From positions 1,488,001 to 1,552,000 of the forward strand of contig NZ_KI519454.1 of NCBI RefSeq assembly GCF_000482545.1: a stretch of 64,000 nt of DNA, in the 5' to 3' direction. The notes below the pieces were generated by a model. That model worked only from the letters and a program-made list of their open reading frames with translations. It was not told where the DNA came from and searched no databases. The stretch is from Arthrobacter sp. 35W (GTDB lineage Bacteria > Actinomycetota > Actinomycetes > Actinomycetales > Micrococcaceae). Made by a program: the position numbers and the translations under genes. Positions 10,499 to 51,086 of the stretch are shown here, piece by piece (positions within the stretch are counted from its first letter, which is position 1; each line of letters begins with the position of its first letter).

Positions 10499-10514
10499 AC
10501 AGGAGACCCGCCCC

Positions 10515-11621
10515 ATGATCAACTTCGACAATGTTTCAAAGGTCTACCCCGACGGCACTGTCGCCGTCGACGGTCTGACGCTCCAGGCGCCCACCGGGAA
10601 GCTCACCATCCTCATCGGCCCCTCCGGCTGCGGCAAGACCACCTCGATGCGGATGATCAACCGCCTGATCGAGCCGTCCTCGGGGGTCATCTCCCTGGAT
10701 GGGACCGACACGCAGAGCCTCAACCGGGTGGACCTGCGCCGCCGCATTGGCTACGTCATCCAGAACGCCGGACTGTTCCCGCACCGCACCATCGTGGACA
10801 ACGTCGCCGCCATGCCGCGCCTGCTCGGCACCCCCAAACGCGAGGCGCGGGCCAACGCCATGGAGCTGCTGGAGCGCGTGGGGCTGAATGAAAAGTTTGC
10901 CAACCGCTACCCCTGGCAGCTCTCCGGCGGCCAGCAGCAGCGCGTGGGTGTGGCCCGCGCGCTGGCCACGGACCCGCCCTTCCTGCTGATGGATGAGCCG
11001 TTCAGCGCCGTGGACCCGATTGTCCGGGCGCAGCTGCAGGAGGAGTTCCTGCGGCTGCAGCGCGAGATCGGCAAGACCATTGTGATGGTCACCCATGACA
11101 TCGACGAGGCCCTGAAGCTGGGCGACCAGGTCGCTGTGCTGCGCGAGGGCGGGCACCTGGCCCAGGTGGCCTCGCCGGCCCATCTGCTGGCGCACCCCGC
11201 CGATGCCTTCGTGGCCGACTTCGTCGGCACGGCGCGCGGCTACCGTGCGCTCGGTTTTGTCACGGCCGACGGAACGCTCGGTGTCGACCGCGAGCCGACG
11301 GTCCGGGTGGGCGACGACGCCGCCACCGCCACCGTGGGTGCCGACGGCTGGGCCCTGGCCGTCGATGAATCCAACATCCCCCAGGGCTGGGTGCAGCTGG
11401 GCCGCCTCAATGGGGCACAGATCACCGAATCGGACATCAACATCAGCGGCACCGTGGCCAAGGAGTTCGGCAATCTGCGCGACATGCTCAACTCCGCACT
11501 CTCCAGCCCCAGCGGCCGGGGTGTGGTGGTGGACGAGCGCGGTGTGCTGGTGGGCACCGTCAGTGCCGAAGCCATCGTCGCCGCCATCCGGACGGCCAAA
11601 CAGGAGGTGCTGGCGTCATGA
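10515..11621 (+). CDS. quaternary-amine/osmoprotectant ABC transporter ATP-binding protein (OpuC/ProV type)
   Basis: A 368-residue ATPase that energises uptake of betaine-like solutes. The Walker A is GPSGCGKTT (about 33-41), the Q-loop region VIQNAGLFPH, the signature LSGGQQQRVGVARAL, Walker B FLLMDEPFSAVDP, and the H-loop MVTHDIDEA. The roughly 120 residues after the ATPase core match the C-terminal regulatory (CBS-like) region of OpuCA/ProV. The final residues GVVVDERGVLVGTVSAEAIV are CBS-like. AGGAGA lies eight bases upstream of ATG. The stop overlaps the next start by four bases, so translation is likely coupled. Confidence 0.92.
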   Translation: MINFDNVSKVYPDGTVAVDGLTLQAPTGKLTILIGPSGCGKTTSMRMINRLIEPSSGVISLDGTDTQSLNRVDLRRRIGYVIQNAGLFPHRTIVDNVAAMPRLLGTPKREARANAMELLERVGLNEKFANRYPWQLSGGQQQRVGVARALATDPPFLLMDEPFSAVDPIVRAQLQEEFLRLQREIGKTIVMVTHDIDEALKLGDQVAVLREGGHLAQVASPAHLLAHPADAFVADFVGTARGYRALGFVTADGTLGVDREPTVRVGDDAATATVGADGWALAVDESNIPQGWVQLGRLNGAQITESDINISGTVAKEFGNLRDMLNSALSSPSGRGVVVDERGVLVGTVSAEAIVAAIRTAKQEVLAS

Positions 11622-12268
11622 CCATTGATTGGATCTTCGCCAACATTGGGCGGATCAGCGAGCTGACAGCCTCGCACATCTTCCTCACCCTCGTGCCCAC
11701 CCTGCTGGGCCTGATCGTGGCCCTGCCGCTGGGCTGGTGGGCCCACCGCCGCCGCGGTGCCTACCCGGTGATCGTCGGAGCGGCCGGACTGCTCTACACC
11801 ATCCCTTCATTGGCCCTCTTCGTCCTGCTGCCGCAGGTGCTGGGCACCAAGATCCTTGATCCGCTCAATGTGGTGGTGGCCCTGACCGTCTACACGGTGG
11901 CCCTGCTGGTCCGCGTGGTGGCCGATGGCCTCTCCTCGGTGCCGATTGAGACGGTCCAGGCCGCAACGGCCATGGGCTACCGCGGTTGGCAGCGCCTGTG
12001 GCTGGTGGAACTGCCGGTGGCGGTTCCGGTGATCGCTTCGGGCATGCGCGTGGCCGTGGTGGCCAACGTCAGCATCGTGACGATGGCGGCCCTGCTGGGC
12101 ATTCCCCAGCTGGGCTCCCTCTTCACCCAGGGGTTCCAGCTGCGGCTCTTCGTGCCGATCATCACCGGCATCGTGCTCTGCCTGGTGCTGGCCGTGCTGC
12201 TGGACCTCCTTCTGGTGTGGCTCAACCGGGCACTCACTCCGTGGCGACAGAAGACGGTGACGTCATGA
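11618..12268 (+). CDS. osmoprotectant ABC transporter permease (OpuCB/OpuCD type), first copy
   Basis: A 216-residue inner-membrane permease with five to six predicted transmembrane segments. The conserved coupling (EAA) loop is ETVQAATAMGYRGWQRLWLVELPVAVPVI, split here by the usual Gly. It is the typical single-domain permease of quaternary-amine transporters and forms a heterodimer with the next gene product. It overlaps both neighbours by four bases (ATGA), a hallmark of one tightly coupled operon. Confidence 0.9.
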   Translation: MTIDWIFANIGRISELTASHIFLTLVPTLLGLIVALPLGWWAHRRRGAYPVIVGAAGLLYTIPSLALFVLLPQVLGTKILDPLNVVVALTVYTVALLVRVVADGLSSVPIETVQAATAMGYRGWQRLWLVELPVAVPVIASGMRVAVVANVSIVTMAALLGIPQLGSLFTQGFQLRLFVPIITGIVLCLVLAVLLDLLLVWLNRALTPWRQKTVTS

Positions 12269-15867: not shown

Positions 15868-17082
15868 ATGGATGCCATGACTACAGAACCGACAGCGCCG
15901 CTGACCATCACCAATGCCCTGATCTTCGACGGAACATCGGCCGATCTGGTCGAAGGATCCATCGTCTTCAACGGTGGTCTGGTGGCCGAGGTGGGGGATG
16001 TTGAACCCCAGGGTCAGGTGGTGGACGCCGCCGGCAAGGTGGTGGTTCCCGGACTCATTGATGCGCATTTCCACGCCTATGCCGTGGGCCTGGGCGGCAT
16101 GGAGGTGGAACGCAGTCCGCTGAGCTACTCCGCCCTGGTGGGCGCACAGCGACTGGGCCTGGCCCTGGGCCGGGGATTCACCACAGTCCGCGACGTCGCC
16201 GGCGGTGACATCGGACTGTCCAAGGCGATCGAGAAGGGGCTGTTCGCCTCACCGCGCTACTACTACACCGGCCCGGCTTTCAGCCAGACGGGTGGACACG
16301 GGGACCCGCGGGCCGCCGACGTCGATGTTTGCTTCAGCCATGGCCACATGTGCGCGGTGGTGGACGGCGTGGACCAGCTGCGCCAGGCGGTGCGGGAACG
16401 TTTCCGCACCGGCAGCCACGCAATCAAGATCATGACCTCCGGGGGAGTGGTGTCCCTGACCGACCCCATCCGCGTCCCGCAGTACTCGGGCGAGGAGATC
16501 CGCGCAGTGGTGGACGAGGCCACGCGCCGCGGCAGCTACGTGGCCGCCCATGCCTACTCTCCCGAGGCGATCCGGCACTCCGTGGAAAACGGCGTCAGGT
16601 CCATCGAGCACGGCAATCTGCTCGACGAGGCGACGGCGGAGCTGATGGCCGAGCATGGGGCGTTCCTGGTGCCGACCCTTGCCGCCTACGACGCCATGAA
16701 CCGCCGCGGCGAGGCCGCGGGACTGAACCCCGTATCCCAGGCCAAGAACGCCGAGGTGCTCTCCGCGGGCAAGGATGCCATCGGCATGGCCCTGCGTGCC
16801 GGCGTCCGCGTGGGCTTCGGCTCGGACCTGATGGGGGAGCTGGAGGACGACCAGCTGCAGGGGGTCAGGTTGCAGATCGAGGCCGTTGGCGTGCTGGAGA
16901 CGCTGCGGTCCATGACCAGCGTCAACGCCGAGCTGCTGCAGAACCCCAGCCTGGGCAGCCTGCGGGCGGGCGCCGTCGGCGACGCCGTACTGCTGGACGG
17001 GAACCCCTTCGAGGACCCGGCCGTGCTGTGGGACGAGTCCCGGCCGCGGACAGTGCTCCAGGCCGGACGCGTCACCGCCTGA
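15868..17082 (+). CDS. metal-dependent amidohydrolase (imidazolonepropionase/Xaa-Pro-like)
   Basis: A 404-residue amidohydrolase-superfamily enzyme. A beta-sandwich segment flanks the TIM barrel. The metal site shows VVPGLIDAHFHAY (HxH), a lysine in IKIMTSGGV, histidines in YVAAHAYS and SIEHGN, and the aspartate in FGSDLMGE. This set is that of the dinuclear imidazolonepropionase-like/carboxypeptidase branch. The substrate is unknown; peptides, carbamates or lactams are possible. The start is ATG 15868 or 15877. No clear Shine-Dalgarno is seen. A hairpin follows. Confidence 0.85.
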   Translation: MDAMTTEPTAPLTITNALIFDGTSADLVEGSIVFNGGLVAEVGDVEPQGQVVDAAGKVVVPGLIDAHFHAYAVGLGGMEVERSPLSYSALVGAQRLGLALGRGFTTVRDVAGGDIGLSKAIEKGLFASPRYYYTGPAFSQTGGHGDPRAADVDVCFSHGHMCAVVDGVDQLRQAVRERFRTGSHAIKIMTSGGVVSLTDPIRVPQYSGEEIRAVVDEATRRGSYVAAHAYSPEAIRHSVENGVRSIEHGNLLDEATAELMAEHGAFLVPTLAAYDAMNRRGEAAGLNPVSQAKNAEVLSAGKDAIGMALRAGVRVGFGSDLMGELEDDQLQGVRLQIEAVGVLETLRSMTSVNAELLQNPSLGSLRAGAVGDAVLLDGNPFEDPAVLWDESRPRTVLQAGRVTA

Positions 17083-17099
17083 GTCCGGGTGCCGGGCAT

Positions 17100-17125
17100 G
17101 GGTGGCGCAGCGGGCGGCGCCACCC
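17100..17125 (+). terminator. hairpin after the amidohydrolase gene
   Basis: GGGTGGCGC and GCGCCACCC form a nine-base perfect stem with an eight-base loop, followed by further GC-rich sequence and no T tract. It separates the amidohydrolase from the operator-controlled aminotransferase unit. Confidence 0.5.
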
Positions 17126-17169
17126 GGCCGGGGCCCATCGGTTGTGACGGCGGTCATGGGCTGGTAAAT

Positions 17170-17179
17170 TGAACGTTCA
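17170..17179. promoter_or_regulatory. LacI-type operator O1
   Basis: TGAACGTTCA, a perfect 10-base palindrome with the central CG typical for LacI-family sites. An identical copy follows with centres 53 bases apart, close to five helical turns. That suits looping by a LacI-family tetramer or joint binding by two dimers. Confidence 0.7.
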
Positions 17180-17222
17180 TATCCACCCTCCCGTGCAGCA
17201 CCGATTCGAAGTGGTAGAAATT

Positions 17223-17232
17223 TGAACGTTCA
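17223..17232. promoter_or_regulatory. LacI-type operator O2
   Basis: A second identical TGAACGTTCA. It overlaps a TTG triplet (17222) that could be read as a start of the aminotransferase. The true start is therefore more likely the ATG at 17255, or the transcript is very short-leadered. Confidence 0.7.
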
Positions 17233-17254
17233 TATTGCCAATCCAGCCCTGTCG

Positions 17255-18355
17255 ATGGACGCCTACCTCGGGCAGTTCGCCGAGCCCGAGGGCTATCTGG
17301 ACTTTGCCCGCTTCGGTCCCGTGTCGGCTGCAGTCTCCGAGCGGATGGCCCTTTCGGCCCGCATGGTGCACAGCGAGGGCGGCAGGGGCCTGGCCACCCT
17401 GGAGGGCCTGCATGTGCCGTCCCGTGCTGCTGCCGCCCGGCTGCTGGCCGCCGAAGAGCACGAGGTGGCGTTCGTCGGCTCCACCAGCCATGGACTCTTT
17501 GCGGCAGCCCAGGCGCTGAGCCGCAGATCCGGCGTCATCCTGGTGCCGCGGAACGACTTTCCCTCCAACGTCTACCCGTGGCTGCGGGCTGCCGAACGCG
17601 GGGGCCTGCAGGTGCGGTGGATGGACGGTCCTGTGACACCCGACTCCATTCGCCCGCTGCTGGACGACACCGTGAAGGCTGTGGCGGTCAGCGCCGTCGA
17701 TTCCTTCACCGGAGCACTGGCACCGCTGGCGGCGATCAAGGAACTCATCGGCTCCCAGCGGGTGCTGGTGGTCGACGCGGTGCAGGCCTTCGGAGCCGTG
17801 GAGTTCGATGTCGACGCCGCCGACGTGCTGGCCTCGGGCGGGCAGAAGTGGCTCCGTGCCGGTTGGGGCGCCGCCGCCCTGCTCGTCAGGGACCGCGTGG
17901 CTGACATGCTCGAACCCGGTCTGGGCGGCTGGTCCGGCGTGCAGAATCCGTTGAATGGTGAACCCCATCCGCACGAGCCCCTGCGCGGTGCCGCCGCCCA
18001 TACTCTGACCAACCCGGACCCGGCAGCGGTGGCCGCCTACGGCGTCGCCGCCGGCCTCGTGCTGCAGGTGGGCCTGCGGCAGATCCACGGACGGATCACC
18101 GAGACGCTGGCGGCGTTGCTGGATGCTGCCGCAGGGCAGGGAGCGCAGCTGCGCTATCCGCGGCCGGGTGGTGGCATCGGCTCCTTCACCATGCCCGGCG
18201 CCGACCCGGTGGCCCTGAACGCGGCCCTGGCCCAGGCCGGGGTGACCACCACGATGCGCGACGGCTGGCACCGGCTCGCCCCGCATGCCTCCACCGACGC
18301 ACAGATTGCCGATGCCCTGGCCGGCGTACTGGCCCGCCATGCCCACGCGGCCTGA
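17255..18355 (+). CDS. class V aminotransferase / cysteine-desulfurase-like PLP enzyme
   Basis: A 366-residue fold-type I PLP enzyme. Visible motifs are the N-terminal YLDFARFGPVS, VDSFTGALAPLAAI, VDAVQAFGAVEFD (cofactor Asp and Gln) and SGGQKWLRAGWG, with the Schiff-base lysine in GGQKW. No active-site cysteine loop of true NifS/SufS desulfurases is evident, so aminotransferase, lyase or kynureninase-like activity is more likely. The TTG at 17222 would add 11 residues but lies inside an operator. The 3' end overlaps the LacI-type gene by 17 bases, so both are one transcription unit controlled by that repressor. Confidence 0.8.
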   Translation: MDAYLGQFAEPEGYLDFARFGPVSAAVSERMALSARMVHSEGGRGLATLEGLHVPSRAAAARLLAAEEHEVAFVGSTSHGLFAAAQALSRRSGVILVPRNDFPSNVYPWLRAAERGGLQVRWMDGPVTPDSIRPLLDDTVKAVAVSAVDSFTGALAPLAAIKELIGSQRVLVVDAVQAFGAVEFDVDAADVLASGGQKWLRAGWGAAALLVRDRVADMLEPGLGGWSGVQNPLNGEPHPHEPLRGAAAHTLTNPDPAAVAAYGVAAGLVLQVGLRQIHGRITETLAALLDAAAGQGAQLRYPRPGGGIGSFTMPGADPVALNAALAQAGVTTTMRDGWHRLAPHASTDAQIADALAGVLARHAHAA

Positions 18356-19403
18356 GCACCGGGGGCGGCCCCAGCGCGGAGTGACGATCGAGGACGTGGC
18401 CAGGGGTGCCGGCGTTTCGCGGCAGACCGTGTCCAATGCCCTCAATGCGCCGCACCGGGTTCGCGGAGAGACCCTGGAGAGGGTCAAGACGGTCATCGAG
18501 GAACTGGGCTACCGGCCGGACCAGTCAGCGCGCAGCCTCAAGACCGGGCTGCGGTACACCATCGGCTACCAGGCGCCGGATGACGATCCCTTCAACCCGA
18601 ATCCGGTGATGGGCGGGTTCCTGACGGCCCTGTGCGATGCCGCAGCCGCCTCGGGGTACCGGCTGCTGTTGTTCCGGCCCAGGCCGGGCGCCTCGGATCC
18701 GCGTGCGGCCTACGAGGATCTCATTGCCGCGCGTCAGGTGGATGGGTTCATCCTTTCCGACGTCCTGGCCGATGACCCACGGGTGGACCACCTGGGTGGA
18801 CTGGGGTTCCCCTTTGTCGCCTTTGGACAGACGGGTCCTGGCCGGCCGCAGGATTGGGTGGATGTGGACAATGCGCGGGGGATGCACGACGTCGCCGCCC
18901 TGCTGGCGGCCAGGGGCCACCGGCGGGTGGGGTACATCGAATCCGCCACCAACGTGCCATGGTTCGCGCAACGGTACAGCGGGTTCACCCGCGGGGCCGC
19001 GGAGCATGGACTGGACGTTGCCACGGTCCTTGAGCCGCGGGCGGCCGGTGCAGCCGGGGAATCCCGCGGCGGGCTCACGATGGCGATCCAGTTGCTGCTG
19101 CGCTCACCCCAGCGTCCCAGCGCCCTGGTCGCCTCCGCCGATCCACTGGCGCTGGCGGCCTACGATGCCATCCGCGCCGAGGGACTCACCGTTGGTGCGG
19201 ACATCGCCGTCGTGGGGTTCAACGACCTGCCGCTGTCCGGATTGCTGGCCCCACAGCTGGCCTCCGTGCGGATGCCGCTGCCCGCCATTGCCCAGGAACT
19301 GGTGGCCAGGCTGCTGGCGCAGGTCCACGGCGGAGAGCCGGCCGCGGCAGGCTCGCTGCTGCCGCCGGAGGTCATCATCCGGGGCAGCATCCAGCCGCGC
19401 TGA
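18339..19403 (+). CDS. LacI-family transcriptional regulator
   Basis: A 354-residue repressor. The N-terminal HTH and hinge cover about residues 14-68 (VTIEDVARGAGVSRQTVSNAL, interrupted here; ELGYRPDQSARSLKTG). A periplasmic-binding-protein-like effector domain follows (GFILSDVLADDPRVDHL; DVDNARGMHDVAALLAARGHRRVGYI; DIAVVGFNDLPLSGLLAPQLASV). ATG 18339 lies inside the end of the aminotransferase gene, and a GTG at 18381 is the alternative. It probably binds the two TGAACGTTCA sites in front of its own operon. The link to an aminotransferase rather than a sugar gene is unusual for the family. Confidence 0.88.
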   Translation: MPTRPEHRGRPQRGVTIEDVARGAGVSRQTVSNALNAPHRVRGETLERVKTVIEELGYRPDQSARSLKTGLRYTIGYQAPDDDPFNPNPVMGGFLTALCDAAAASGYRLLLFRPRPGASDPRAAYEDLIAARQVDGFILSDVLADDPRVDHLGGLGFPFVAFGQTGPGRPQDWVDVDNARGMHDVAALLAARGHRRVGYIESATNVPWFAQRYSGFTRGAAEHGLDVATVLEPRAAGAAGESRGGLTMAIQLLLRSPQRPSALVASADPLALAAYDAIRAEGLTVGADIAVVGFNDLPLSGLLAPQLASVRMPLPAIAQELVARLLAQVHGGEPAAAGSLLPPEVIIRGSIQPR

Positions 19404-19580: not shown

Positions 19581-21680
19581 ATGACCCGCACTGTAAGGCT
19601 CAACGGCATTGCGTTTGGGGGCGACTACAACCCCGAGCAGTGGCCGCGCGAGGTGTGGCAGGAGGACGTGCGCCTCATGCAGAAGGCCGGTGTCAACTTC
19701 ATCACCGTCTCGGTGTTCTCCTGGCCGCTGCTGGAACCGGAGGAGGGCCGCTTCGACTTCGGCTGGCTGGATGAAGTCATCGAACTGCTCCACAGCGCCG
19801 GGATCGCCGTCGACCTCGCCACGGCAACGGCCACCCCGCCGGCCTGGCTGATCCGCAAGCACCCCGAGGTTCTGCCGGTGACGGCCGACGGCGTGCGGCT
19901 GGCCTTCGGCTCCCGCCAGGCCTACTGCTTCAGTTCCCCGGTGTTTCGGGCCTACGCCCTCAAGCTCACCCGGGCCATGGCCGAACGCTACGGCAACCAC
20001 CCGGCAGTGCGGCTGTGGCACGTCTCCAACGAGTACGGCGACCATGTGGCCCGCTGCTGGTGCGATGCCTCCGGGATGCACTTCCGCGGCTGGCTGAAGT
20101 CCAAGTACTCCAGCATCGAGGCGCTGAACGAGGCCTGGGGGACCAGCTGCTGGGGGCAGCACTACCTGGACTTCGAGGCCATCGAGCCGCCGCGCACGGC
20201 CACAGGCCCCATCAACTCCACCCAGCGGCTGGACTTTGAACGCTTCTCCTCCGACGCCATGCTGGAGCTTTTCACCGCGGAGGTCCAGGTGCTCCGCGAG
20301 GTGACGCCGGAGCTGCCGGTGACCACCAACTTCATGTCCATCCTGCACGAGCTGGACTACTTCAAGTTCGCAGACGCCGAGGACATCGTCACCGACGACG
20401 CCTATCCGGACCCGGCCGACCCCCGCTCCCATGTGGATGCGGCGCTGAACTACGCGCTGATGCGCGGCGCCAAGGGCGGAGCCCCGTGGCTGCTGCTGGA
20501 GCAGTCCGCCAGCGCCGTCAGCTGGCGCGAGGTCAACGTGCCCAAGGCGCCCGGCGTCATGCGTCTGGACAGCTACCAGGCCATGGCCCACGGCGCGGAC
20601 GGCATCATGTACTTCCAGTGGCGCGCGGCCAAGTTCGGCCCGGAGAAGTTCCACGCCGCCATCCTGGGGCACCGCGGGGAGCGCAGCCGCACCTTCGCCG
20701 AATGCAGCGTCCTGGGCGCTGAACTGGCGGGACTCGCCGCCGTGAAGGGCAGCCGGGTGGTGGCCCAGGTGGCCATGCTCTGCGATTGGGATTCCAATTG
20801 GGCCCTCGCCGCCCCGGATTCGCTGCCGACCGACCGCCTGCCCTGGATCAAGGCCGCCCGGGCCTGGCACCGCGCCACCTTCGGGCTGGGCGCCACGGTG
20901 GACCTGGTCCGGGCCGGGGCAGACCTCACCAGCTACAAGGTGCTGCTGCTCCCCAACCTCTACCTGGTCCAGCCGGAGCTGGCGGCGCAGCTTGAGGCCT
21001 TCGCGGCTGCCGGCGGCACTGTCGTCGTCGGGCCGTTCTCCGGCGTTGTCGACGCCAACGACCACATGCACGACGGCGGCGCCCCGGGCCCGCTGCGCCC
21101 GCTGCTGGGGGTGGAGGTTGACGAGGTGTGGCCGCTGCCCGACGGCACCGCGGGGGAGATCCTGCTGGCCGGGGAGCCGCGCGGAGTGCACACCATCACC
21201 GAATGGATCGATGCCGTGGATGCCCGGATCGTGGCCCGCTACAGCGGCGGCGAGCTGGACGGGCGGGCGGCTGTGACGGTGCGCGAGCACGGCGCCGGCA
21301 GCGCCTGGTACCTCAGCGCCGCACTGGCCGAGGACGGCATGTCGGTGCTGATGGCGGAGATCCTGGACGAGGCCGGCGTGGCCCGGCGCCCGCTGCCCGC
21401 CAGCGCGGAGGCCGGCGACGCCGTCGAACTCGTGGTGCGCCGCGGACCCGACTCCTCCTTCAGCTTTGTGCTCAACCGCGGCACGGACCACGTCCCCGTG
21501 GACCTTCCCTCCAGTGCGACGGTTCTGGTGGGCGGCAGCGCTGCCTCCACCGTGCCGCCCCGCGGCGTGCTGGTGGTCCAGCACGACCACGCCGACGCCG
21601 TCGTTCTCGCGGCGGAGCCCGGCGCAGCAACAGACTTTTCGACCCCCCTTTCCACTCCAACAGCAGAGGTGACCCCATGA
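19581..21680 (+). CDS. GH42-family beta-galactosidase
   Basis: A 699-residue glycoside hydrolase. The GH42 barrel has an N-terminal FGGDYNPEQWP signature, the acid/base Glu151 in WHVSNEYG and the nucleophile Glu307 in WLLLEQS. Cysteines near 160 (RCWCDASG) fit the zinc-site region of GH42 trimers. A beta-galactosidase trimerisation domain and a small beta domain follow. There is no signal peptide, so the enzyme is cytoplasmic and acts on imported galactosides or arabinosides. ATG 19581 has GGAAGG nine bases upstream, and an ATG at 19563 is the alternative. The stop overlaps the next start by four bases. Confidence 0.92.
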   Translation: MTRTVRLNGIAFGGDYNPEQWPREVWQEDVRLMQKAGVNFITVSVFSWPLLEPEEGRFDFGWLDEVIELLHSAGIAVDLATATATPPAWLIRKHPEVLPVTADGVRLAFGSRQAYCFSSPVFRAYALKLTRAMAERYGNHPAVRLWHVSNEYGDHVARCWCDASGMHFRGWLKSKYSSIEALNEAWGTSCWGQHYLDFEAIEPPRTATGPINSTQRLDFERFSSDAMLELFTAEVQVLREVTPELPVTTNFMSILHELDYFKFADAEDIVTDDAYPDPADPRSHVDAALNYALMRGAKGGAPWLLLEQSASAVSWREVNVPKAPGVMRLDSYQAMAHGADGIMYFQWRAAKFGPEKFHAAILGHRGERSRTFAECSVLGAELAGLAAVKGSRVVAQVAMLCDWDSNWALAAPDSLPTDRLPWIKAARAWHRATFGLGATVDLVRAGADLTSYKVLLLPNLYLVQPELAAQLEAFAAAGGTVVVGPFSGVVDANDHMHDGGAPGPLRPLLGVEVDEVWPLPDGTAGEILLAGEPRGVHTITEWIDAVDARIVARYSGGELDGRAAVTVREHGAGSAWYLSAALAEDGMSVLMAEILDEAGVARRPLPASAEAGDAVELVVRRGPDSSFSFVLNRGTDHVPVDLPSSATVLVGGSAASTVPPRGVLVVQHDHADAVVLAAEPGAATDFSTPLSTPTAEVTP

Positions 21681-23047
21681 CGGAACAAGCCGTCCACCCG
21701 TACATCCCCAACACCGCCCCCGATTCCCGGGCCGCCATGCTGGCAGCCACCGGCGCGGCAAGCATCGAGGAGTTCTACGCGGACATCCCCGCCGAGCTGC
21801 GCGTCAAGGGCCTGCTCAACCTGCCAGAGCCCTTCACGGCCGAGGCGGACCTCGAGCGGCACGTCAGCTCGCTGCTGGCGAAGAACACCAGCACCCGCGA
21901 ATACCTCACCTTCCTGGGCGCCGGCGTCTACAACCACTACGTCCCCGCGGTTGTCGAGGACGTCATTGGCCGCAGCGAGTTCCTCACCGCCTACGCCGGA
22001 GAGCCCTACGAGGACCACGGCCGCTTCCAGGCCCTGTTCGAGTATCAGTCGCTGATGGCCGAGCTGCTGAACATGGACGTCGTGAACGTCCCCACCTACG
22101 ACGGCTACCAGGCCACCGCGACGTCGCTGGCCATGGCCGGGCGCATCACCGGCCGCCGCACGGTGATTGTGGCCTCCGACGTGCACCCGGACAAGATGTC
22201 CAAGGTCCGCGACTACGTGCGCCCCTTCCTGGACCTCGTGGTGGTCCCCACCGTCGACGGTGTGGCCGATCTGGCCGCCGTCCGCAGCCTGGTCACCGAC
22301 GAGACTGCCGCCGTCTGGCTGGAGACCCCGAGCTACTTCGGTGCCCTGGAGGCCGCCGGCGCCGAGCTGGCCGCCACGGCGCATGACCGCGGCGCCCTGC
22401 TGGTGGTCGGCACCGATCCCATCGGCTGTGGTGTGCTGGCCCCGCCGGCCGACTGGGGAGCCGACATTGTCTGCGGCGACATCCAGTCCCTGGGCGTGCG
22501 CCAGTGGTTTGGCGGCGGACGCGGCGGCTTCATCTCCGTCCACGACGACCCGGCCTTTGTGCTGGAAATGCCCTCGCGGCTGTTCGGCATCGAAAGCACC
22601 ACCGTGGAGGGCGAATACGGCTTCGGCGACGTGGCCTGGGACCGCACCTCCTTCGCCCTGCGCGAAGAGGGCAAGGAATGGGTGGGCACGGCCGCAGCAC
22701 TCTGGGGCATTGCCGCCGGCGTGTACCTCTCCGTGATGGGGCCGGCCGGCATGGCCGAGCTGGGCGAGACCCTGCTGGCCCGCACCGCCTACGCCCGCCA
22801 GACGCTGGCGGCCTTGGACGGCGTCGAGCTCACCGACACGGCACTGCACCTGCGCGAGTTCACCATCGACGTCGCCGGCACCGGGATGACGGCCCGGCGC
22901 CTGGTTGAACTGATGCGCTCGAAGAACATCGACGCCGGCGTGGTGGCCGGCGAGCACCGCCTGCTGGTGTGCGTCACCGAACTGACCAACACCGCCGACA
23001 TCGACACACTGGCCGCCGCACTGGCCACGACCTTCCAGGAGAACTGA
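21677..23047 (+). CDS. gcvPA: GcvPA-like protein (glycine dehydrogenase subunit 1 family), diverged
   Basis: A 456-residue PLP-fold protein. The N-terminus is clearly GcvPA: YIPNTAPDSRAAML, SIEEFYADIPAELR, FLGAGVYNHYVPAVV, FEYQSLMAELLNMDV. However, conserved catalytic stretches of true GcvPA are altered. The region that normally reads AYTPYQPEISQG is AYAGEPYEDHGR. The FGGPYLGF loop is FGGGRGGF, and the RREKATSNICTNQ motif is replaced by REEGKEWVGTAAAL (about 329-342). No GcvT or GcvH gene is nearby. It overlaps GH42 by four bases and lies one base before its partner. Either a diverged glycine decarboxylase or, more likely, a PLP enzyme with another amino-acid-like substrate. Confidence 0.8.
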   Translation: MTEQAVHPYIPNTAPDSRAAMLAATGAASIEEFYADIPAELRVKGLLNLPEPFTAEADLERHVSSLLAKNTSTREYLTFLGAGVYNHYVPAVVEDVIGRSEFLTAYAGEPYEDHGRFQALFEYQSLMAELLNMDVVNVPTYDGYQATATSLAMAGRITGRRTVIVASDVHPDKMSKVRDYVRPFLDLVVVPTVDGVADLAAVRSLVTDETAAVWLETPSYFGALEAAGAELAATAHDRGALLVVGTDPIGCGVLAPPADWGADIVCGDIQSLGVRQWFGGGRGGFISVHDDPAFVLEMPSRLFGIESTTVEGEYGFGDVAWDRTSFALREEGKEWVGTAAALWGIAAGVYLSVMGPAGMAELGETLLARTAYARQTLAALDGVELTDTALHLREFTIDVAGTGMTARRLVELMRSKNIDAGVVAGEHRLLVCVTELTNTADIDTLAAALATTFQEN

Positions 23048-23048
23048 G

Positions 23049-24662
23049 ATGAGCCTTCCCGTAGCACCCAAGCCGGCCCTGCGGCGTTTCCACCAGGCCA
23101 GCTGGGATGAGCCGATCATCTTCGAGCTGAGCACCCCGGGGGAGCGCGGCGTGCTGGTCCAGCGCCCCGCAGCTGTGGAGTCCGAGGCCCTCTCGCGCCG
23201 CGCCGGCCAGGTGGCCGCCGTCCGCCGCAGCACCGCCCCGGCTCTGCCCGAGCTGGCCCAGATGCGCGTGGTGCGCCACTTCCTGCGCCTGAGCCAGGAG
23301 AACCTGGGCGCCGATTTCAACGTGGACATCGGCCAGGGCACCTGCACCATGAAGTACAGCCCCAAGATCAACGAGGCCCTCCTGCGCACCACCAAGGCCA
23401 TGGATCTGCACCCGCTGCAGGATGAATCCAAGGTCCAAGGCATCCTGGAGATCTTCTGGCGGACCGAGCAGCTGCTGGCGGAGATCTCCGGCCTGGAGCG
23501 CGTGAGCCTGCAGACCCAGGGCGGTTCCGCCGCAATCTGGTCCAACATCGCCATGATCCGCGCCTACCACGAGTCCAATGGCGAGGGCGAAAGCCGCGAT
23601 GAGGTCATCACCACGATCTTCTCCCACCCCTCCAACGCCGCCTGCGCCAAGGCCGCCGGCTACAAGGTGATCACCCTGATGCCCGACGCCGATGGCTACC
23701 CGGACATCGAGGCCCTCAAGGCAGCCGTCTCCCCGCGCACCGCAGCACTGATGATCACCAACCCGGAGGACACCGGCATCTACAACGCCAGGATCCGCGA
23801 GTTTGTCGATCTGGTGCACGGAGTCGGCGGCCTGGCAGCCTACGACCAGGCCAACGCCAACGGCATCCTGGGCATCACCCGGGCCCGCGAGGCCGGCTTC
23901 GACCTGTGCCACTTCAACCTGCACAAGACCTTCAGCACCCCGCACGCCAGCGGCGGCCCGGGTGCCGGTGCCAGCGCCGTCTCGGCGAAGCTGGTCCCGT
24001 TCCTGCCCGGCCCCACCATCGACAAGGTGGGGGACAGGTTCGTGATCAATGGCGACCACCCGCAGTCGGTCGGCAAGATCGCCCCGTTCTACGGTGTGAC
24101 CCCGAACATCATCCGCGCCTACGCCTGGATCATGGCGCTCGGCGCCGAGGGTCTGCGCCAGGTGGCCGAGATCGCGGTACTGAACAACAACTACCTGCTC
24201 AGCCAGGTGCTGGCCATCCCCGGCGCCAGCGCCCCCTACGCCGAGGGCAAGCGCCGCATCGAACAGGTCCGCTACTCCTGGGAGGAATTGTTCGAGGAAA
24301 CGGGCATCTCCTCGGAGGAGATCGGCATCCGCCTCTCCGACTTCGGGATGCACTACTGGACCAGCCACCACCCGTATCTGGTGGCCCAGCCGTTCACCCT
24401 GGAGCCCACCGAGTCCTACTCCAAGACGGAGATCGACGAGTACGTCGCGGCCCTGGCCGAAGTGGTCCGCGAATGCCGCGAGGAGCCGGAGACGGTGCGC
24501 ACCGCCCCGCACAACCAGACGGTGCACCACATCCACCACGATGACTTCGATGCGCCCGAGCGCTGGGCCATCACCTGGCGCGCCTACCAGCGCAAGTACT
24601 TCGGGGCCGTCCCGGCATCGGAGGCCACCCCGGCCGCCGTCGCCGATCCGGCCGTCCGCTGA
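23049..24662 (+). CDS. gcvPB: GcvPB-like protein (glycine dehydrogenase subunit 2 family), diverged
   Basis: A 537-residue partner of the preceding protein. It keeps the Schiff-base lysine (Lys293 in FNLHKTFSTPH) and the TCTMKYSPKIN entry motif. The following loop is HASGGPGAGASAV instead of the usual HGGGGPGSGPVGV. The HGTNPASA motif is SHPSNAACA, and TNPNTLG is TNPEDTG. The C-terminus carries a histidine-rich stretch (VHHIHHDDF, about 504-512) where standard GcvPB has a short conserved tail. These changes cluster around the cofactor, so substrate or partner has probably changed. Context: operon with glycoside hydrolases and a sugar transporter. Confidence 0.8.
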   Translation: MSLPVAPKPALRRFHQASWDEPIIFELSTPGERGVLVQRPAAVESEALSRRAGQVAAVRRSTAPALPELAQMRVVRHFLRLSQENLGADFNVDIGQGTCTMKYSPKINEALLRTTKAMDLHPLQDESKVQGILEIFWRTEQLLAEISGLERVSLQTQGGSAAIWSNIAMIRAYHESNGEGESRDEVITTIFSHPSNAACAKAAGYKVITLMPDADGYPDIEALKAAVSPRTAALMITNPEDTGIYNARIREFVDLVHGVGGLAAYDQANANGILGITRAREAGFDLCHFNLHKTFSTPHASGGPGAGASAVSAKLVPFLPGPTIDKVGDRFVINGDHPQSVGKIAPFYGVTPNIIRAYAWIMALGAEGLRQVAEIAVLNNNYLLSQVLAIPGASAPYAEGKRRIEQVRYSWEELFEETGISSEEIGIRLSDFGMHYWTSHHPYLVAQPFTLEPTESYSKTEIDEYVAALAEVVRECREEPETVRTAPHNQTVHHIHHDDFDAPERWAITWRAYQRKYFGAVPASEATPAAVADPAVR

Positions 24663-24709: not shown

Positions 24710-25999
24710 ATGACGAACTCCCTTTTCACCCGACGCACCTTCTTTGCCGGTTCGCTGGGGGCGGCCGCACTGCTGGCCATCTCCGCCTGCGGCGGCGGCG
24801 CAGCCAGCGGCGGCAAGGACGCCAAGATTACCTGGTCCACCTGGGGCACTCCGGAGGAAGGCCAGCGCTTCAAGAAGTTCAACGAGCAGTTCAAGAAGGA
24901 CCATGCCTCCATCGCCGCCACGCTGCAGATGGTGCCCTCCTACTCGGAGTACCACTCCAAGCTGCTCACCCAGCTGACCAGCGGCACGGCACCTGATGTG
25001 TTCTATGTGGGCGATGACTACATGGGCAAGTTTGTCGATGCCGGTGTGCTGATGAACCTGGACTCGGTGGTCAATGGCGGCGGCTTGAAGGCCTCCGACT
25101 TCAACGAGGCGCTCTTCGGTGCGGCCAAGACGGACAAGGGCCTCTTTGCCCTGCCAAACGACTGCAACCCGGACGTGATGTGGTTCGACAAGAAGTCGCT
25201 GGCCGCAGCCGGCATCACCGAGAACCCGGCCGAGCTCGCCGCGGCGGGCAAGTGGACCGTGGACACCTTCCTGGACATGTGCCGCAAGCTGGCCGGCGCC
25301 GGCATGCACGGTGCGCTGTTCTGGAACTACTGGGCCACGCACTGGAGCTGGGTTGCTGCCAACGGAGGCAAGGTCTTCGATGCGGCAGGCACCTTTGTGC
25401 TCCCCAACGACGCCGCTGGCAAGGCCGCCCTGAAGCAGTTGGGCGACGCCTTCCAGCAGAAGCTTTTCACCGTGGCCGACACCCTCCCGGAGGGCTCGGG
25501 CGGCGACAGCCTCTTCGCCTCCCACAAGGCCGGCTTCTACGTCCAGGGCCGCTACGGCATCGCGACGGCGGAGCAGTCAGGCAGCAAGGACGACTACGAC
25601 ATCGCGCCGTGGCCCTCCGCCTCCGGCAAGCCCGATGCCAGCGGCGTCGCCGCGTCCTACCTGGTGATCAATGCCAAGACGAAGGCGCCCGAGGCGGCCA
25701 CTACCTTCCTGACGGAGTTCCTCAGCGCCAATGGCCAGACCCTGCGCCTGGCCGACGGCGGCAACGCCGTTCCGTCGATCAAGGGGGCCGACGCCGTCGT
25801 CCTGGACGGTTCCTACCCGGCCCACGCCCAGACGTTCCTTGACCTGCGTGATGCCGGTTTCTCCGACTACGCCAAGGAGGCAAAGGTCCCGGGGCTGTCC
25901 TCGGACGTCAGCGAACTCATGCTCTCCCTGTACGAGGGCAAGACCAGCGCCGACGACGTGGTGGCGCAGCTGTCCACCATGATGGCCAAGGCGGCCTAA
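24710..25999 (+). CDS. sugar ABC transporter substrate-binding lipoprotein (CUT1 family 1)
   Basis: A 429-residue extracellular binding protein. The signal region TRRTFFAGSLGAAALL carries a twin-arginine pair and ends in lipobox AISAC, suggesting a lipoprotein, possibly Tat-exported. The mature part is a two-lobe family 1 receptor: ITWSTWGTPEE, LTSGTAPDVFYVGDDY, LFALPNDCNPDVMWFDK, and a late KAGFYVQGRYG. Ligands of such receptors are di- or oligosaccharides or glycosides. AGGAGA lies seven bases upstream of the ATG. It provides specificity for the two downstream permeases. The ATPase is missing and is presumably a shared MsiK-type protein encoded elsewhere. Confidence 0.9.
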   Translation: MTNSLFTRRTFFAGSLGAAALLAISACGGGAASGGKDAKITWSTWGTPEEGQRFKKFNEQFKKDHASIAATLQMVPSYSEYHSKLLTQLTSGTAPDVFYVGDDYMGKFVDAGVLMNLDSVVNGGGLKASDFNEALFGAAKTDKGLFALPNDCNPDVMWFDKKSLAAAGITENPAELAAAGKWTVDTFLDMCRKLAGAGMHGALFWNYWATHWSWVAANGGKVFDAAGTFVLPNDAAGKAALKQLGDAFQQKLFTVADTLPEGSGGDSLFASHKAGFYVQGRYGIATAEQSGSKDDYDIAPWPSASGKPDASGVAASYLVINAKTKAPEAATTFLTEFLSANGQTLRLADGGNAVPSIKGADAVVLDGSYPAHAQTFLDLRDAGFSDYAKEAKVPGLSSDVSELMLSLYEGKTSADDVVAQLSTMMAKAA

Positions 26000-26003
26000 C
26001 GCC

Positions 26004-26999
26004 GTGGCAACTACCTTGCATGGCAGCCGCCGGAGCGGCAACCCGGGTGGCCGCTCCGGCGGCCGCCCGGACGGCGGGGCCCAAAATGGCAGCGGCACAG
26101 CCATCGTGGAGCGCAGGGAGGCCGGCTGGCGGCGGCGCGACCGATGGATGGGCCTGGTGTTCGTCGGTCCGCAGCTGCTGGGCATGTGCGTCTTCGTCCT
26201 GCTGCCGTTCGCCGTCGGCATGGTCCTGGCCTTTGCCAAGTGGGACGGCCTCACGGCCCTGGAATGGGTGGGCACCGACAACTTCGCCGCCCAGATGGCC
26301 AACCCGGAATTCCTGCGGGCCATCATCAACACCGTGGCGATCGCCCTCATCACCGTGCCGATCGGCCTGGCACTGTCCCTGCTGATCGCCGTCGGCCTGG
26401 ACAGGCTGCGGGCGCGCACGGGCTACCTGATCATGTACTTCGCCCCCGTAATGACCAGCTCCATCGCCATTTCCCTGGTGTGGCAGCAGATCCTGCGGGC
26501 GGACGGCCCGTTGAACTCCTCCTTCGCCAAGGTGTTCGGCATCCCGGGGCCGGATTGGCTGGGGGATCCGCGCTTTGTGCTGCCGGCCGTGTGCATCGTG
26601 ACCATCTGGTCCTCGCTGGGGCTGAACGTGATCATCTTCCTGGCCGGCCTGCAGGGCATCTCGCCCTCGATTCTGGAGGCCGCCAAGGTCGACGGCGCAG
26701 GCCCGCTGCGGACCATGCTGCGGATCCGGCTGCCGCTGCTGTCCCCGGTGGTGTTCTTCTCCACCGTGGTGGCCGTCATCAGCTCCTTCCAGACATTCGA
26801 CGTCGTCTTCATCCTCACCAAGGGCGGCGGGCCGGACGATTCCGCACGGACCATCGTGTACCAGATCTATGAGGACGGCTTCAAGAACTTCGAGTTCGGC
26901 ATGGCAAGCGCCGCCTCGATCATCCTGCTGCTCCTCACCCTCCTCGTCACGGCCGTGCAGCTGATGCTGCAGCGCCGGTTTGTCCACTACGAAAGCTGA
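26004..26999 (+). CDS. sugar ABC transporter permease (MalF type)
   Basis: A 331-residue membrane protein with a charged N-terminal extension of about 45 residues and six predicted membrane segments. The EAA loop is LEAAKVDGAGPLRTMLRIRLPLL, split over about residues 225-250. It starts at GTG 26004, four bases after the receptor stop. It forms the channel with the next product. The N-terminal extension rich in Gly/Arg is cytoplasmic. Confidence 0.9.
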   Translation: MATTLHGSRRSGNPGGRSGGRPDGGAQNGSGTAIVERREAGWRRRDRWMGLVFVGPQLLGMCVFVLLPFAVGMVLAFAKWDGLTALEWVGTDNFAAQMANPEFLRAIINTVAIALITVPIGLALSLLIAVGLDRLRARTGYLIMYFAPVMTSSIAISLVWQQILRADGPLNSSFAKVFGIPGPDWLGDPRFVLPAVCIVTIWSSLGLNVIIFLAGLQGISPSILEAAKVDGAGPLRTMLRIRLPLLSPVVFFSTVVAVISSFQTFDVVFILTKGGGPDDSARTIVYQIYEDGFKNFEFGMASAASIILLLLTLLVTAVQLMLQRRFVHYES

Positions 27000-31384: not shown

Positions 31385-32143
31385 TTAGGCGATGCCGCCG
31401 CCGTCGACCACCAGCGCAGCGCCGGTGACGTAGGAGCTGGCGTCGCTGGCCAGCCACACCACTGCCTCGGCGATTTCGTCAGGGGTGCCCATGCGCTTGA
31501 GCGGGCGGTCGTTGGACTCGTCCAGGAAGCTCTGCTCTTCCTGGGAGAGCTGGCGGGCCTCCTCGCGCAGCATCGGTGTGTTCGTGTCGCCCGGGTTGAC
31601 GGAGTTGACGCGGATGTTGTCCGGGCCGTGGTCGATCGCCAGGGCGCGGGTCATGTTGACCACCGCCGCCTTGGAGGCGCAGTAGGACAGCGCGGTGCCG
31701 CCGCCCTTCAGTCCCCAGCCGGAGCCGGTGTTCACGATCGCGCCGCCGCCATTGGCGATCATCAGCGGCACCACAAACTTGCACATCAGGAACACGCCGC
31801 GGACGTTGACGGCCATGACCTGGTCCCACTCGGCGGTGGTGGTGTCGATGACGTTGGCGCGGCGGATGATGCCGGCGTTGTTGAAGAGGACGTTGATGGT
31901 GCCCAGGGCGGCCACAGCCTGCTCCACCGCCGCTTTCACGGAGGTCTCGTCGGCGACGTCGGCGGCAATGGCGACGGCGTTGACGCCCAGTGCCTGGATC
32001 TCCGCCGCCACGGCCTCGGCCGCTGCGTGGTTGATGTCGACGACGGCGACGTCGGCGCCTGCCGCAGCCATGGCCAAGGCCGTGGCCCGGCCGATGCCGG
32101 AACCGCCGCCGGTGACAAGGGCCTTCTTATCCTGCAAACGCAT
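31385..32143 (-). CDS. short-chain dehydrogenase/reductase (SDR)
   Basis: A 252-residue classical SDR. The cofactor motif is TGGGSGIG (about 12-19), with Asp in VVDIN favouring NAD(H). NNAG is near 85, followed by the Ser of NTGSGWG and the catalytic YCASK. The C-terminus ends TGAALVVDGGGIA. ATG 32143 has GGAG eight bases upstream, and an in-frame ATG at 32155 is the alternative. It follows the NAD-kinase-like gene on the same strand and is likely co-transcribed. The substrate, a polyol, hydroxy acid or acetoin-like compound, is unknown. Confidence 0.9.
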   Translation of the reverse strand: MRLQDKKALVTGGGSGIGRATALAMAAAGADVAVVDINHAAAEAVAAEIQALGVNAVAIAADVADETSVKAAVEQAVAALGTINVLFNNAGIIRRANVIDTTTAEWDQVMAVNVRGVFLMCKFVVPLMIANGGGAIVNTGSGWGLKGGGTALSYCASKAAVVNMTRALAIDHGPDNIRVNSVNPGDTNTPMLREEARQLSQEEQSFLDESNDRPLKRMGTPDEIAEAVVWLASDASSYVTGAALVVDGGGIA

Positions 32144-32231
32144 GGTGTTCTCCATATCGGGTGTCGCTTCCTTGAGTGGGTGATGATCGATGGGTCGGGG
32201 GGAAATGCTGGTGGAAAGTTGTTAGGGGCGC

Positions 32232-33389
32232 CTAGTCCAAAGTGCCGACGGGGTAGACGGTTTCAGTGCCGGGGCCGGTGAAAACCTTGGTGTAGCCGCT
32301 CAGGGCGGCGTCGGCCTCTGCACTGCCGGTGTCCACGCGCAGGGCGCGGGTTCCCAGCGAGGCCAGCTTCGCCGGCGTCGCGATCACCAGCAGTTCAGTG
32401 CCCCTAACGAGTTCTGCGGTGAGCTGCTGGTTTCCACGGCCCACAATGAAGCCCTGGCCGCCCAGGGGCGTGACCACGATGGTAGCCGTGACGCCGGACA
32501 ACAATTCTTCCAGCTCTGCGGCCGTGGCATCCTTGGCCAGCAGCACGCCGTCGCGCACCACATCCACACCCAGCCTGGTCAGCTTCAGGCCGAGGGAGCA
32601 GCCGACGGCGAGGGTGGTGCCGCCGGGGCCGAGCACATAGGCGTGGCCTGCCCGCATTGACGCGGCAAAGGCATCGGCCAATGCGCCGACGGCCGTGGCG
32701 TCGGAGGCGGGGGTGGGGGTCTTGCGGTCCTGGAGCCGGGTGGGGTCGACGGGCACCCGAAGGGACCCGTAGTACGCGGGGGAGGCCGCACCGGCCCGCA
32801 GCGCGTCCTCGTCAATGTCCACCACATCGCGTTCGGTGGTGGCGCGGGCGGGGGAGAGCAGCCATGCCGCCGCCGCGGACCCGGCCGCAACGGGCGTCAG
32901 CGCAAAGGCCGCGGAATAGATCTTGACGCCGGCCGGAATGCCCAGCACGGGCAGGGCGCCGTCGACGGCGTCGAGAATGTCGCGGGCGGTGCCGTCGCCG
33001 CCGGCAAAGAGCAGCAGGTCCACACCGGAGTCCCGGAGGGCCAGCGCAAGGGTGCGCGTGCTGGCGGCCGTTGTTGCCCCATGTGACGCGGACTGCGCGC
33101 CATCTGGCTCGGCCCAGGGGGAGGCCAGCCGCACGCTGCACAGGCCTGCCGCGGCGTCTTCGCCGAGTTCGCCGGGCCCGGTGAGCACAACGACGTCGCG
33201 GCCCTGGTGGGCCAGCCTGTCGACCAGCTGCCGGAGGGCGCGCCGGGTCCGCAGCGCCGATTGGGGTTCCACTCCTGCTGCCCGGGCGAGCTCGCGGATG
33301 TCGGGAGCGTCGCTGCCCTTGTGGGCGCACGGGCCGCCGAGGCCGGCAACGGGATTGACGATCAGTCCTACAACAAATGGCTGTGGCAT
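32232..33389 (-). CDS. ATP-NAD kinase-like protein (AcoX-type)
   Basis: A 385-residue protein with the NAD-kinase-like fold. The N-terminal VVGLIVNPVAGLGG, central LLLFAGGDGTARDILDAV (GGDGT motif) and IPAGVKIYSAAFALTP are characteristic of the COG3199 branch that includes AcoX of acetoin operons. The middle holds a variable insertion (about 185-245). True NAD kinase activity is not guaranteed for this branch. Its pairing with an SDR and a GntR regulator resembles small catabolic units for diols or hydroxy compounds. It is divergent from the GntR gene with CTGTATACAG in between. Confidence 0.8.
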   Translation of the reverse strand: MPQPFVVGLIVNPVAGLGGPCAHKGSDAPDIRELARAAGVEPQSALRTRRALRQLVDRLAHQGRDVVVLTGPGELGEDAAAGLCSVRLASPWAEPDGAQSASHGATTAASTRTLALALRDSGVDLLLFAGGDGTARDILDAVDGALPVLGIPAGVKIYSAAFALTPVAAGSAAAAWLLSPARATTERDVVDIDEDALRAGAASPAYYGSLRVPVDPTRLQDRKTPTPASDATAVGALADAFAASMRAGHAYVLGPGGTTLAVGCSLGLKLTRLGVDVVRDGVLLAKDATAAELEELLSGVTATIVVTPLGGQGFIVGRGNQQLTAELVRGTELLVIATPAKLASLGTRALRVDTGSAEADAALSGYTKVFTGPGTETVYPVGTLD

Positions 33390-33420: not shown

Positions 33421-33509
33421 CATGTAGAACGCGGGCAAGAGATTGCTTCAGCTAGGATGCGATGAACAGTCTGCGGTGGGGGACTGGACCGCAGAGTGAG
33501 GAGAACGGC

Positions 33510-34163
33510 ATGTCAATACAGCGTCAAACCCTGCGCGAGCAGATCGAAACCGAAATCATGGAACGTGTGGGCGCGGGTGATTTCGACATGGGATCGGCCA
33601 TCAATGAGGTGGCCCTGTCCGTGGAGCTGGGCGTCAGCCGCACGCCGCTGCGCGAGGCCCTGATATCCCTCACGCAGCAGGGTGTCATAGACCGAGAATC
33701 CGGCAAGGGGTTCCGTTGGGCACCTGTCAGCGCGGCGGATTTCGCGGAGATGGTGCAGATCATCGCGGCCCTGGAATCCCTGGCCGTCTCCCTCACCGCG
33801 CCGGAGGCATTGGCCAAGATCGCGCCCGAGCTGCTGGCCCAGGCCCGCGGATTCACGGATTCGATCGGCTCCTCGGCGGAGCTGGACCTCCACGACGACC
33901 AGTTCCATGAGCTGCTGCTCTCCGGCAATCCCAACCGGCGCCTGGCGGAAAGCATCGCGTCCATGAAGCTGGCCCTGCGCCGCTATGAGCGGCTGCTGGT
34001 CTCCAGCACGGATCTGATTGAGCGCTCCGCCTCCGAACATGAGGCGATCGCCACGGCCCTGCTGGCCGGCGATGTCCCGGCCGCTGTGGCAGCGCTGAGC
34101 GCCAATTGGAACAACGGAACCAACCGGCTCATCGAGGTTGCCGAGGCCAAGCGGCCGGCCTAG
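33510..34163 (+). CDS. GntR-family regulator (FadR/FCD subfamily)
   Basis: A 217-residue regulator. The winged HTH covers about residues 8-75 (QTLREQIETEIMERV; ELGVSRTPLREALISLTQQGVI). The all-helical FCD ligand domain covers about 85-210, with likely metal or ligand residues in LHDDQFHELLLSGNPNRR and SEHEAIATALLAGD. GAGGAGA lies about five to ten bases before the ATG. It is the natural candidate for binding the CTGTATACAG sites and therefore for linking the SDR unit and the distant GH42/GcvP-like operon. FCD effectors are usually organic acids or sugar acids. Confidence 0.88.
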   Translation: MSIQRQTLREQIETEIMERVGAGDFDMGSAINEVALSVELGVSRTPLREALISLTQQGVIDRESGKGFRWAPVSAADFAEMVQIIAALESLAVSLTAPEALAKIAPELLAQARGFTDSIGSSAELDLHDDQFHELLLSGNPNRRLAESIASMKLALRRYERLLVSSTDLIERSASEHEAIATALLAGDVPAAVAALSANWNNGTNRLIEVAEAKRPA

Positions 34164-38937: not shown

Positions 38938-38942
38938 CCGCC

Positions 38943-47167: not shown

Positions 47168-47183
47168 CTCTGTGGTTTCTCTT

Positions 47184-47705: not shown

Positions 47706-47713
47706 GGTGGCCC

Positions 47714-48379: not shown

Positions 48380-48414
48380 GGCGGGTTCTCCTCGTGCTCG
48401 GTGGTCGTGGAGGT

Positions 48415-49899: not shown

Positions 49900-49993
49900 G
49901 TCCTGGGGTTCTCCTTCGGGTCGTTCAACACCTGGTGGGTGTCGGGTGCTTGGGTGCCCTGCCGGGTGGTGGCCCGGCAGGGCAATCGTGGGG

Positions 49994-50059: not shown

Positions 50060-50087
50060 GGCATTCACCTCCCTCCACCGTGGTGGG

Positions 50088-51062: not shown

Positions 51063-51086
51063 GGTGGTTTTCCTTCGCCGGTGGGG

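What the first reader, a model, noticed from the sequence alone, without database searches (positions are those of the whole stretch)
21677..24662. Diverged GcvPA/GcvPB pair embedded in a glycoside-utilisation operon
Two P-protein-like subunits are translated between a GH42 galactosidase and a sugar ABC transporter, with no gcvT or gcvH nearby. The PLP lysine (Lys293 of the second protein) and the overall family are kept. Many near-invariant stretches of true glycine decarboxylase are changed: RREKATSNICTNQ is replaced by REEGKEWVGTAAAL, PHGGGGPGSG by PHASGGPGAG, and HGTNPASA by SHPSNAACA. Seen: the sequence and context. Known: split P-protein acts with H-protein on glycine. Inferred: a new PLP activity, perhaps on an amine- or amino-acid-linked sugar or an osmolyte breakdown product.
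Basis: partly seen in the sequence, partly recalled or inferred. Interest (0 to 1): 0.78.

Follow-up and report, generated by a model that had tools for sequence, protein, structure and literature searches.

The report
Kinase-linked relatives of glycine decarboxylase
Two genes that databases label as glycine decarboxylase belong to a separate, widespread enzyme family that travels with a small-molecule kinase instead of the usual glycine-cleavage partners, so it probably breaks down some other amine-containing compound.

Summary
The genome also has two ordinary fused gcvP genes with gcvH nearby; 14 of 14 other member genomes also keep an ordinary P-protein. The pair belongs to a clade well separated from standard split GcvPB (SH-aLRT 100, stem 1.79 changes/site), with many fixed differences. 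In the family, both residues that a docking model gives to H-protein binding (human R373/K376) are replaced in nearly every row. PA-PB-KIN-SDR is contiguous in 66 of 95 loci, Actinomycetota and Chloroflexota; KIN-PA-PB recurs on proteobacterial and rhodococcal plasmids. GH42/GH63 were seen only in Actinomycetota. Most likely this is an H-protein-independent PLP enzyme acting with its kinase and SDR on an amine-bearing molecule, released from a glycoside in Actinomycetota. The substrate is unknown. NCBI models name the pair glycine dehydrogenase, probably wrongly.

The parts
21677..23047 (+). PA: GcvPA-like subunit (456 aa)
   Evidence: PF02347 208 bits; NCBIfam GcvPA 451 bits over cut-off 364; diverged loop and H-docking segment
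23049..24662 (+). PB: GcvPB-like PLP subunit (537 aa), PLP Lys293
   Evidence: NCBIfam GcvPB 560 bits over cut-off 441; HKTFS at 292; aligned to Thermus 1WYT chain B, E 2.4e-87
19581..21680 (+). GH42 glycosidase, overlaps PA start by 4 bases
   Evidence: PF02449 499 bits; in 67 of 95 loci
24710..25999 (+). sugar-type ABC substrate-binding protein
   Evidence: PF01547; best solved relative an arabino-oligosaccharide-binding protein 6RJY, E 1e-24
26004..26999 (+). ABC permease 1 (start uncertain: 26004 or 26148)
   Evidence: PF00528
27005..27907 (+). ABC permease 2
   Evidence: PF00528
27907..29679 (+). MGH1-like / GH63-related glycoside hydrolase
   Evidence: PF22422 211 bits; solved relatives TTHA0978 2Z07, mycobacterial hydrolase 5OHC/6G3N, YgjK; in 62 of 95 loci
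31385..32155 (-). SDR oxidoreductase, conserved partner
   Evidence: PF13561/PF00106; PA-PB-KIN-SDR contiguous in 66 of 95 loci
32232..33389 (-). KIN: ATP-NAD-kinase-type small-molecule kinase, conserved partner
   Evidence: PF01513, PF20143; in 82 of 95 loci; predicted fold aligns to DAGK, NADK and SphK, though unrelated folds score alike
33462..34163 (+). GntR/FCD regulator, conserved neighbour
   Evidence: PF00392, PF07729; in 67 of 95 loci
18381..19403 (+). LacI-type regulator upstream of GH42, not seen in that place in the relatives' gene orders
   Evidence: PF00356, PF13377; gene order

Best explanation
PA and PB form a split P-protein-type PLP enzyme that has left glycine cleavage. SHOWN: it is a separate clade; in the family the modelled H-docking letters and an active-site loop are rewritten; canonical GcvP co-occurs in the 15 genomes checked; its neighbours are an NAD-kinase-type kinase and SDRs, with no H-protein gene found. 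INFERRED: in Actinomycetota an importer brings in a glycoside, GH42 and the GH63-like enzyme trim the sugars, and the amine-bearing aglycone (probably an amino alcohol or hydroxy amino acid) is oxidised or reduced by the SDR, phosphorylated by KIN and then cleaved or deaminated at the PLP of PB without a lipoyl carrier. My odds: not glycine cleavage about 0.75; kinase, SDR and PLP pair in one pathway about 0.85; phosphorylated amino-alcohol substrate about 0.3. The figure below is for the general scheme (non-glycine, H-independent, amine-bearing substrate, with KIN and SDR), not for the exact chemistry.
For: Tree: 32 family + 8 related rows form one clade, SH-aLRT 100, stem 1.79; the family alone 98. 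HMM: seven plasmid relatives that were not in the model score 674-744 bits, standard split GcvPB 397-441 (family rows score higher but several built the model). PB: S98T, E163I, G194P, T195S, T241D, G267Q, H405E, P437W, F441H, E457Y, each in at least 92 of 93 family rows, the standard letter in 31 of 31 standard rows except P437 (30). PA: TPYQ becomes AGEP and SQ becomes DH; R328 is lost in 88 and K331 in 89 of 89 family rows; N335W 89 of 89. Human R373/K376 are H-protein salt bridges in a docking model and Tyr164 is labelled active site in PMC7259800 (passages); by the alignment all three map to changed PA positions. No GcvH found near members. KIN: 82 of 95 loci, adjacent to PA-PB in 7 of 8 plasmid relatives. 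Primary-amine oxidase near the triad in Gemmobacter and R. jostii RHA1, the latter with an ethanolamine permease over its cut-off. PA and PB overlap by 4 bases in 79 of 92 adjacent pairs.
Against: The PLP lysine, His292 and Asp266 are kept in 93 of 93 family rows, His193 and Asn196 in nearly all, so glycine chemistry is not excluded by sequence. The genome makes two H-proteins that PA-PB could borrow. The H-interface is a docking model, not a solved complex, and Lys at 331 is kept in 4 of 8 related rows. New acidic residues near the changed sites (E109, D113, D241) do not suggest a phosphate site. The amine oxidase/ethanolamine permease unit in RHA1 is set apart from the triad by a reverse-strand regulator-like gene (by eye). 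Five loci with a class III aminotransferase (L063, L168-L171) have other extra enzymes, so the substrate may vary.
Confidence: 0.4

Rival explanations
1. H-independent amino acid decarboxylase: PA-PB removes CO2 from a larger amino acid and releases an amine, which aminotransferase, amine oxidase or SDR enzymes then degrade.
For: P-protein chemistry already decarboxylates; H-docking letters lost in the family; primary-amine oxidase nearby in two lineages; class III aminotransferase plus aldehyde dehydrogenase beside KIN-PA-PB in five loci.
Against: Leaves the constant kinase unexplained; no aminotransferase or amine oxidase cluster recurs across the 95 loci.
Confidence: 0.25
2. Ordinary or slightly altered glycine decarboxylase that borrows the genome's H-protein to use glycine freed in glycoside catabolism.
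For: NCBIfam equivalog cut-offs for GcvPA and GcvPB are passed; PLP-site letters kept; two gcvH genes present.
Against: Two ordinary gcvP already present; 14 of 14 other member genomes the same; H-docking and active-site loop letters fixed otherwise in the family; no gcvH linkage, no gcvT on this contig.
Confidence: 0.15
3. Lipoyl-transfer enzyme with an AcoX-type helper: KIN does for PA-PB what AcoX does for acetoin dehydrogenase, and the group is still handed to a lipoyl protein encoded elsewhere.
For: [quoted passage not shown] KIN is of the ATP-NAD kinase family, as AcoX is by recall.
Against: AcoX was not aligned to KIN here; the same paper calls the need for AcoX species-specific; H-docking letters are replaced in the family.
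Confidence: 0.12

Closest known systems
Split glycine decarboxylase P-protein GcvPA/GcvPB (Thermus thermophilus 1WYT/1WYU/1WYV)
   Same: Two-subunit architecture, order PA then PB, PLP Lys, PLP-site His/Asp, near full-length homology
   Different: 36-42% identity to the standard split GcvPB found; rewritten YTPYQPE loop and RREKATSN segment; one-residue insertion before GTCTMK (family only); C-terminal extension with Trp510 in 93 of 93 family and 8 of 8 related rows; kinase and SDR neighbours, no gcvH
AcoX of acetoin catabolism (for KIN)
   Same: Predicted small-molecule kinase (PMC10943186 passages; ATP-NAD kinase family by recall), next to a multi-subunit C-C-cleaving enzyme
   Different: Partner is a PLP P-protein, not the TPP acetoin dehydrogenase; no sequence comparison with AcoX was made
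Diacylglycerol, sphingosine and NAD kinases
Glucosylglycerate/mannosylglycerate hydrolases (GH63-type)
   Same: PF22422 and solved relatives
   Different: 96.7 bits against an NCBIfam cut-off of 550 for glucosylglycerate hydrolase

Membership tests
Glycine decarboxylase P-protein (GcvPA/GcvPB) | Full-length homology, split two-subunit form | tested here: met
Glycine decarboxylase P-protein (GcvPA/GcvPB) | PLP lysine in HKT(S)F | tested here: met
   K293 in 93 of 93 family, 8 of 8 related, 31 of 31 standard rows
Glycine decarboxylase P-protein (GcvPA/GcvPB) | Active-site loop YTPYQPE.SQG incl. human Tyr164 | tested here: not met
   YAGEPYE-DHG; at the Tyr164 position E in 86 and D in 3 of 89 family rows, none Tyr in 8 related rows; Y in 29 of 31 standard rows, 2 partial rows gapped. 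The first Tyr (Tyr161) is kept in 89 of 89 family rows, lost in 8 of 8 related rows
Glycine decarboxylase P-protein (GcvPA/GcvPB) | Basic residues at modelled H-protein interface (human R373, K376) | tested here: not met
   Standard rows: R328 31 of 31, K/R331 31 of 31. Family: R or K at 328 in 2 of 89, K or R at 331 in 0 of 89. Related rows: R328 in 1 of 8, K331 in 4 of 8. Interface is a docking model
Glycine decarboxylase P-protein (GcvPA/GcvPB) | Linked to gcvH/gcvT | tested here: not met
   No GcvH in 107 stretches; gcvT on another contig of own genome; gcvT was not searched in the relatives
Glycine decarboxylase P-protein (GcvPA/GcvPB) | Glycine decarboxylation with lipoyl H-protein | not testable with these tools
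   Needs assay
ATP-NAD kinase superfamily (KIN) | NADK N- and C-terminal Pfam domains, GGDGT | tested here: met
   GGDGT invariant in 31 of 31 rows
AcoX | Linked to acoABC | tested here: inconclusive
   No aco cluster was noticed in the neighbourhoods by annotation or eye; no family search for acoABC was run
AcoX | Sequence orthology to AcoX | not tested
   No AcoX sequence at hand
Glucosylglycerate hydrolase | NCBIfam NF047898 cut-off 550 bits | tested here: not met
   96.7 bits

The most novel reading that the evidence does not exclude
A new class of PLP enzyme on the P-protein fold that works with a dedicated AcoX-type kinase: the kinase phosphorylates an amino alcohol (or hydroxy amino acid) and PA-PB eliminates or cleaves it with no lipoyl carrier. 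This would give a function to an orphan kinase family. In Actinomycetota the substrate comes as a di-glycoside (alpha-glycoside over beta-galactoside; glycosylated hydroxylysine or an amino-alcohol galactoside would fit, untested).
Probability: 0.27. Interest if true: 0.82.

Novelty: new variant of a known kind. Interest (0 to 1): 0.62.

Why it matters
NCBI's own equivalog models accept these proteins as glycine dehydrogenase, and deposited records name the plasmid relatives so; if the name is wrong, many Actinomycetota, Chloroflexota and Rhodobacterales genomes carry a false glycine-cleavage call. The PA-PB-kinase-SDR unit is a small, testable catabolic module of unknown substrate. Because the kinase is of the ATP-NAD kinase family, it may also help to explain AcoX, which was critical for acetoin breakdown in one transfer experiment but has no known function (PMC10943186, passages).

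Tried and rejected
Literature: eight searches of the open PMC library. I saw listings only, up to 25 rows each, and four searches matched more papers than were listed (258, 62, 33 and 159). No listed paper describes this pair or triad. Subscription papers are not held, so this is not proof of absence. The Thermus P-protein paper was not held; active-site residues therefore come from passages of PMC7259800; passages of PMC7850488 only repeat the active-site definition.

Limits of the counts: genes were called by my own script, so a missing gene near a contig end counts as absent. In one search a gene counts as present if its cluster occurs within 9 genes of PB; the SDR and permease clusters are broad, so the strict contiguous counts are safer. 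Family rows: 93 of 94 family loci for PB (L105 dropped, under 480 aa) and 89 of 94 for PA (L062, L093, L111, L120, L131 dropped, absent or under 430 aa). The 31 standard rows are 27 split sequences, all hits of one phylum search, plus 4 rows that stand for only 2 fused proteins of this genome, two of them partial. The tree used 69 rows, its 32 family rows picked by hand out of 93, quick method, SH-aLRT only; L150 has a long end branch. The HMM was built from A1/A2, which hold some of the scored family rows. The predicted structure is of KIN only, from 25 sequences.
Full report
What is there. PA (21677-23047, 456 aa) and PB (23049-24662, 537 aa) are intact, follow GH42 with a 4-base overlap, and precede a sugar-type ABC importer and an MGH1-like/GH63-related hydrolase. 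NCBIfam scores both over the GcvPA and GcvPB cut-offs (451 against 364; 560 against 441), so automatic annotation would call them glycine dehydrogenase.

Is it the cell's glycine decarboxylase? No sign of it. The same genome has two fused gcvP genes at 568 and 566 bits, while PA scores 208. Two gcvH genes lie within about 4 kb of those gcvP genes; one full gcvT lies with the second set, and a weaker partial gcvT-type match elsewhere on the same contig. In 14 of 14 other genomes that hold the diverged pair, a standard P-protein (381-585 bits) is also present.

A separate family. Among 295 genomes of the same family, 13 (own genome included) hold PB relatives at E below 1e-80 and 59% identity or more (one further, partial match in G277). 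In 396 genomes across the phylum, 70 pass E 1e-90, but apart from the own copy only G496 (68%) and G631 (44%) are members; the other matches sit at 36-42%, and the 27 of these that I extracted form the standard set. Plasmid records added eight relatives at 42-47% identity: four Rhodobacterales, Sphingomonas, two Rhodococcus and a haloarchaeon (H1-H8; lower rows not examined). A class-wide search found members in 13 of 394 genomes, own included. The PB tree puts 32 family and 8 related rows on one branch with SH-aLRT 100 and length 1.79, away from 27 standard split and 2 fused sequences. Seven plasmid relatives outside the model score 674-744 bits against it, standard split GcvPB 397-441.

What changed. 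Searches compare 93 family, 8 related and 31 standard PB rows, and 89, 8 and 31 PA rows. PB keeps the PLP lysine, His292 and Asp266 throughout, and His193 and Asn196 in nearly all family rows. It differs at S98T, E163I, G194P, T195S, T241D, G267Q, A380N, H405E, P437W, F441H and E457Y (92 or 93 of 93) and G162A (86 of 93), has an insertion before GTCTMK and a C-terminal extension. The related group shares T98, P194 (7 of 8), D241, E405, W437 and H440. PA's loop YTPYQPE.SQG reads YAGEPYE-DHG in the window; its RREKATSN segment reads LREEGKEW. By the alignment, and my offset of 43 between chain and human numbering, human R373 and K376 fall on PA 328 and 331. PMC7259800 (passages) models these two as salt bridges to H-protein and lists Tyr161 and Tyr164 as active site. 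In the family R or K remains at 328 in 2 of 89 rows and at 331 in none; in the related group R328 remains in 1 of 8 and K331 in 4 of 8, so the loss is complete only in the family. Tyr164 is lost in both; Tyr161 is kept in the family and lost in the related group. The interface is a docking model, not an experiment.

How it may work. The constant set is kinase, PLP pair and SDR. Amine handling nearby supports an amine-bearing substrate: a copper primary-amine oxidase in Gemmobacter and in RHA1 with an ethanolamine permease over its cut-off. I therefore favour phosphorylation by KIN followed by cleavage or deamination at PB's PLP, with the SDR handling the alcohol/ketone step, and in Actinomycetota an upstream supply by import and de-glycosylation. 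The order of steps and the substrate are inference. An H-independent decarboxylase is the main rival.

Novelty. Eight text searches of the open library listed no description. [quoted passage not shown]

Noticed in passing
window 15868-18355: An amidohydrolase and a class V aminotransferase-fold protein (another PLP enzyme) sit just upstream of the LacI/GH42 genes; this arrangement was not seen in the relatives' gene orders.
   Followed up: partly
window 37771-41003: L-rhamnose isomerase and a bifunctional rhamnulose-1-phosphate aldolase/dehydrogenase, both over NCBIfam cut-offs: looks like an ordinary rhamnose operon.
   Followed up: yes
window 46748-53160: Three proteins with low-molecular-weight phosphatase domains (one fused to an ArsR-type HTH) and an aquaporin-family protein: looks like an arsenic-response cluster.
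   Followed up: partly
L053:4979-6819: Genome G277 carries reverse-strand fragments of a second PA/PB copy close to its intact pair; the contig also has ambiguous bases.
   Followed up: no
   Followed up: partly
L151 (Peptoclostridium acidaminophilum plasmid) 9995-12071: A KIN relative (37%) is followed by a class I/II aminotransferase-fold gene instead of PA-PB: another kinase-PLP pairing.
   Followed up: no
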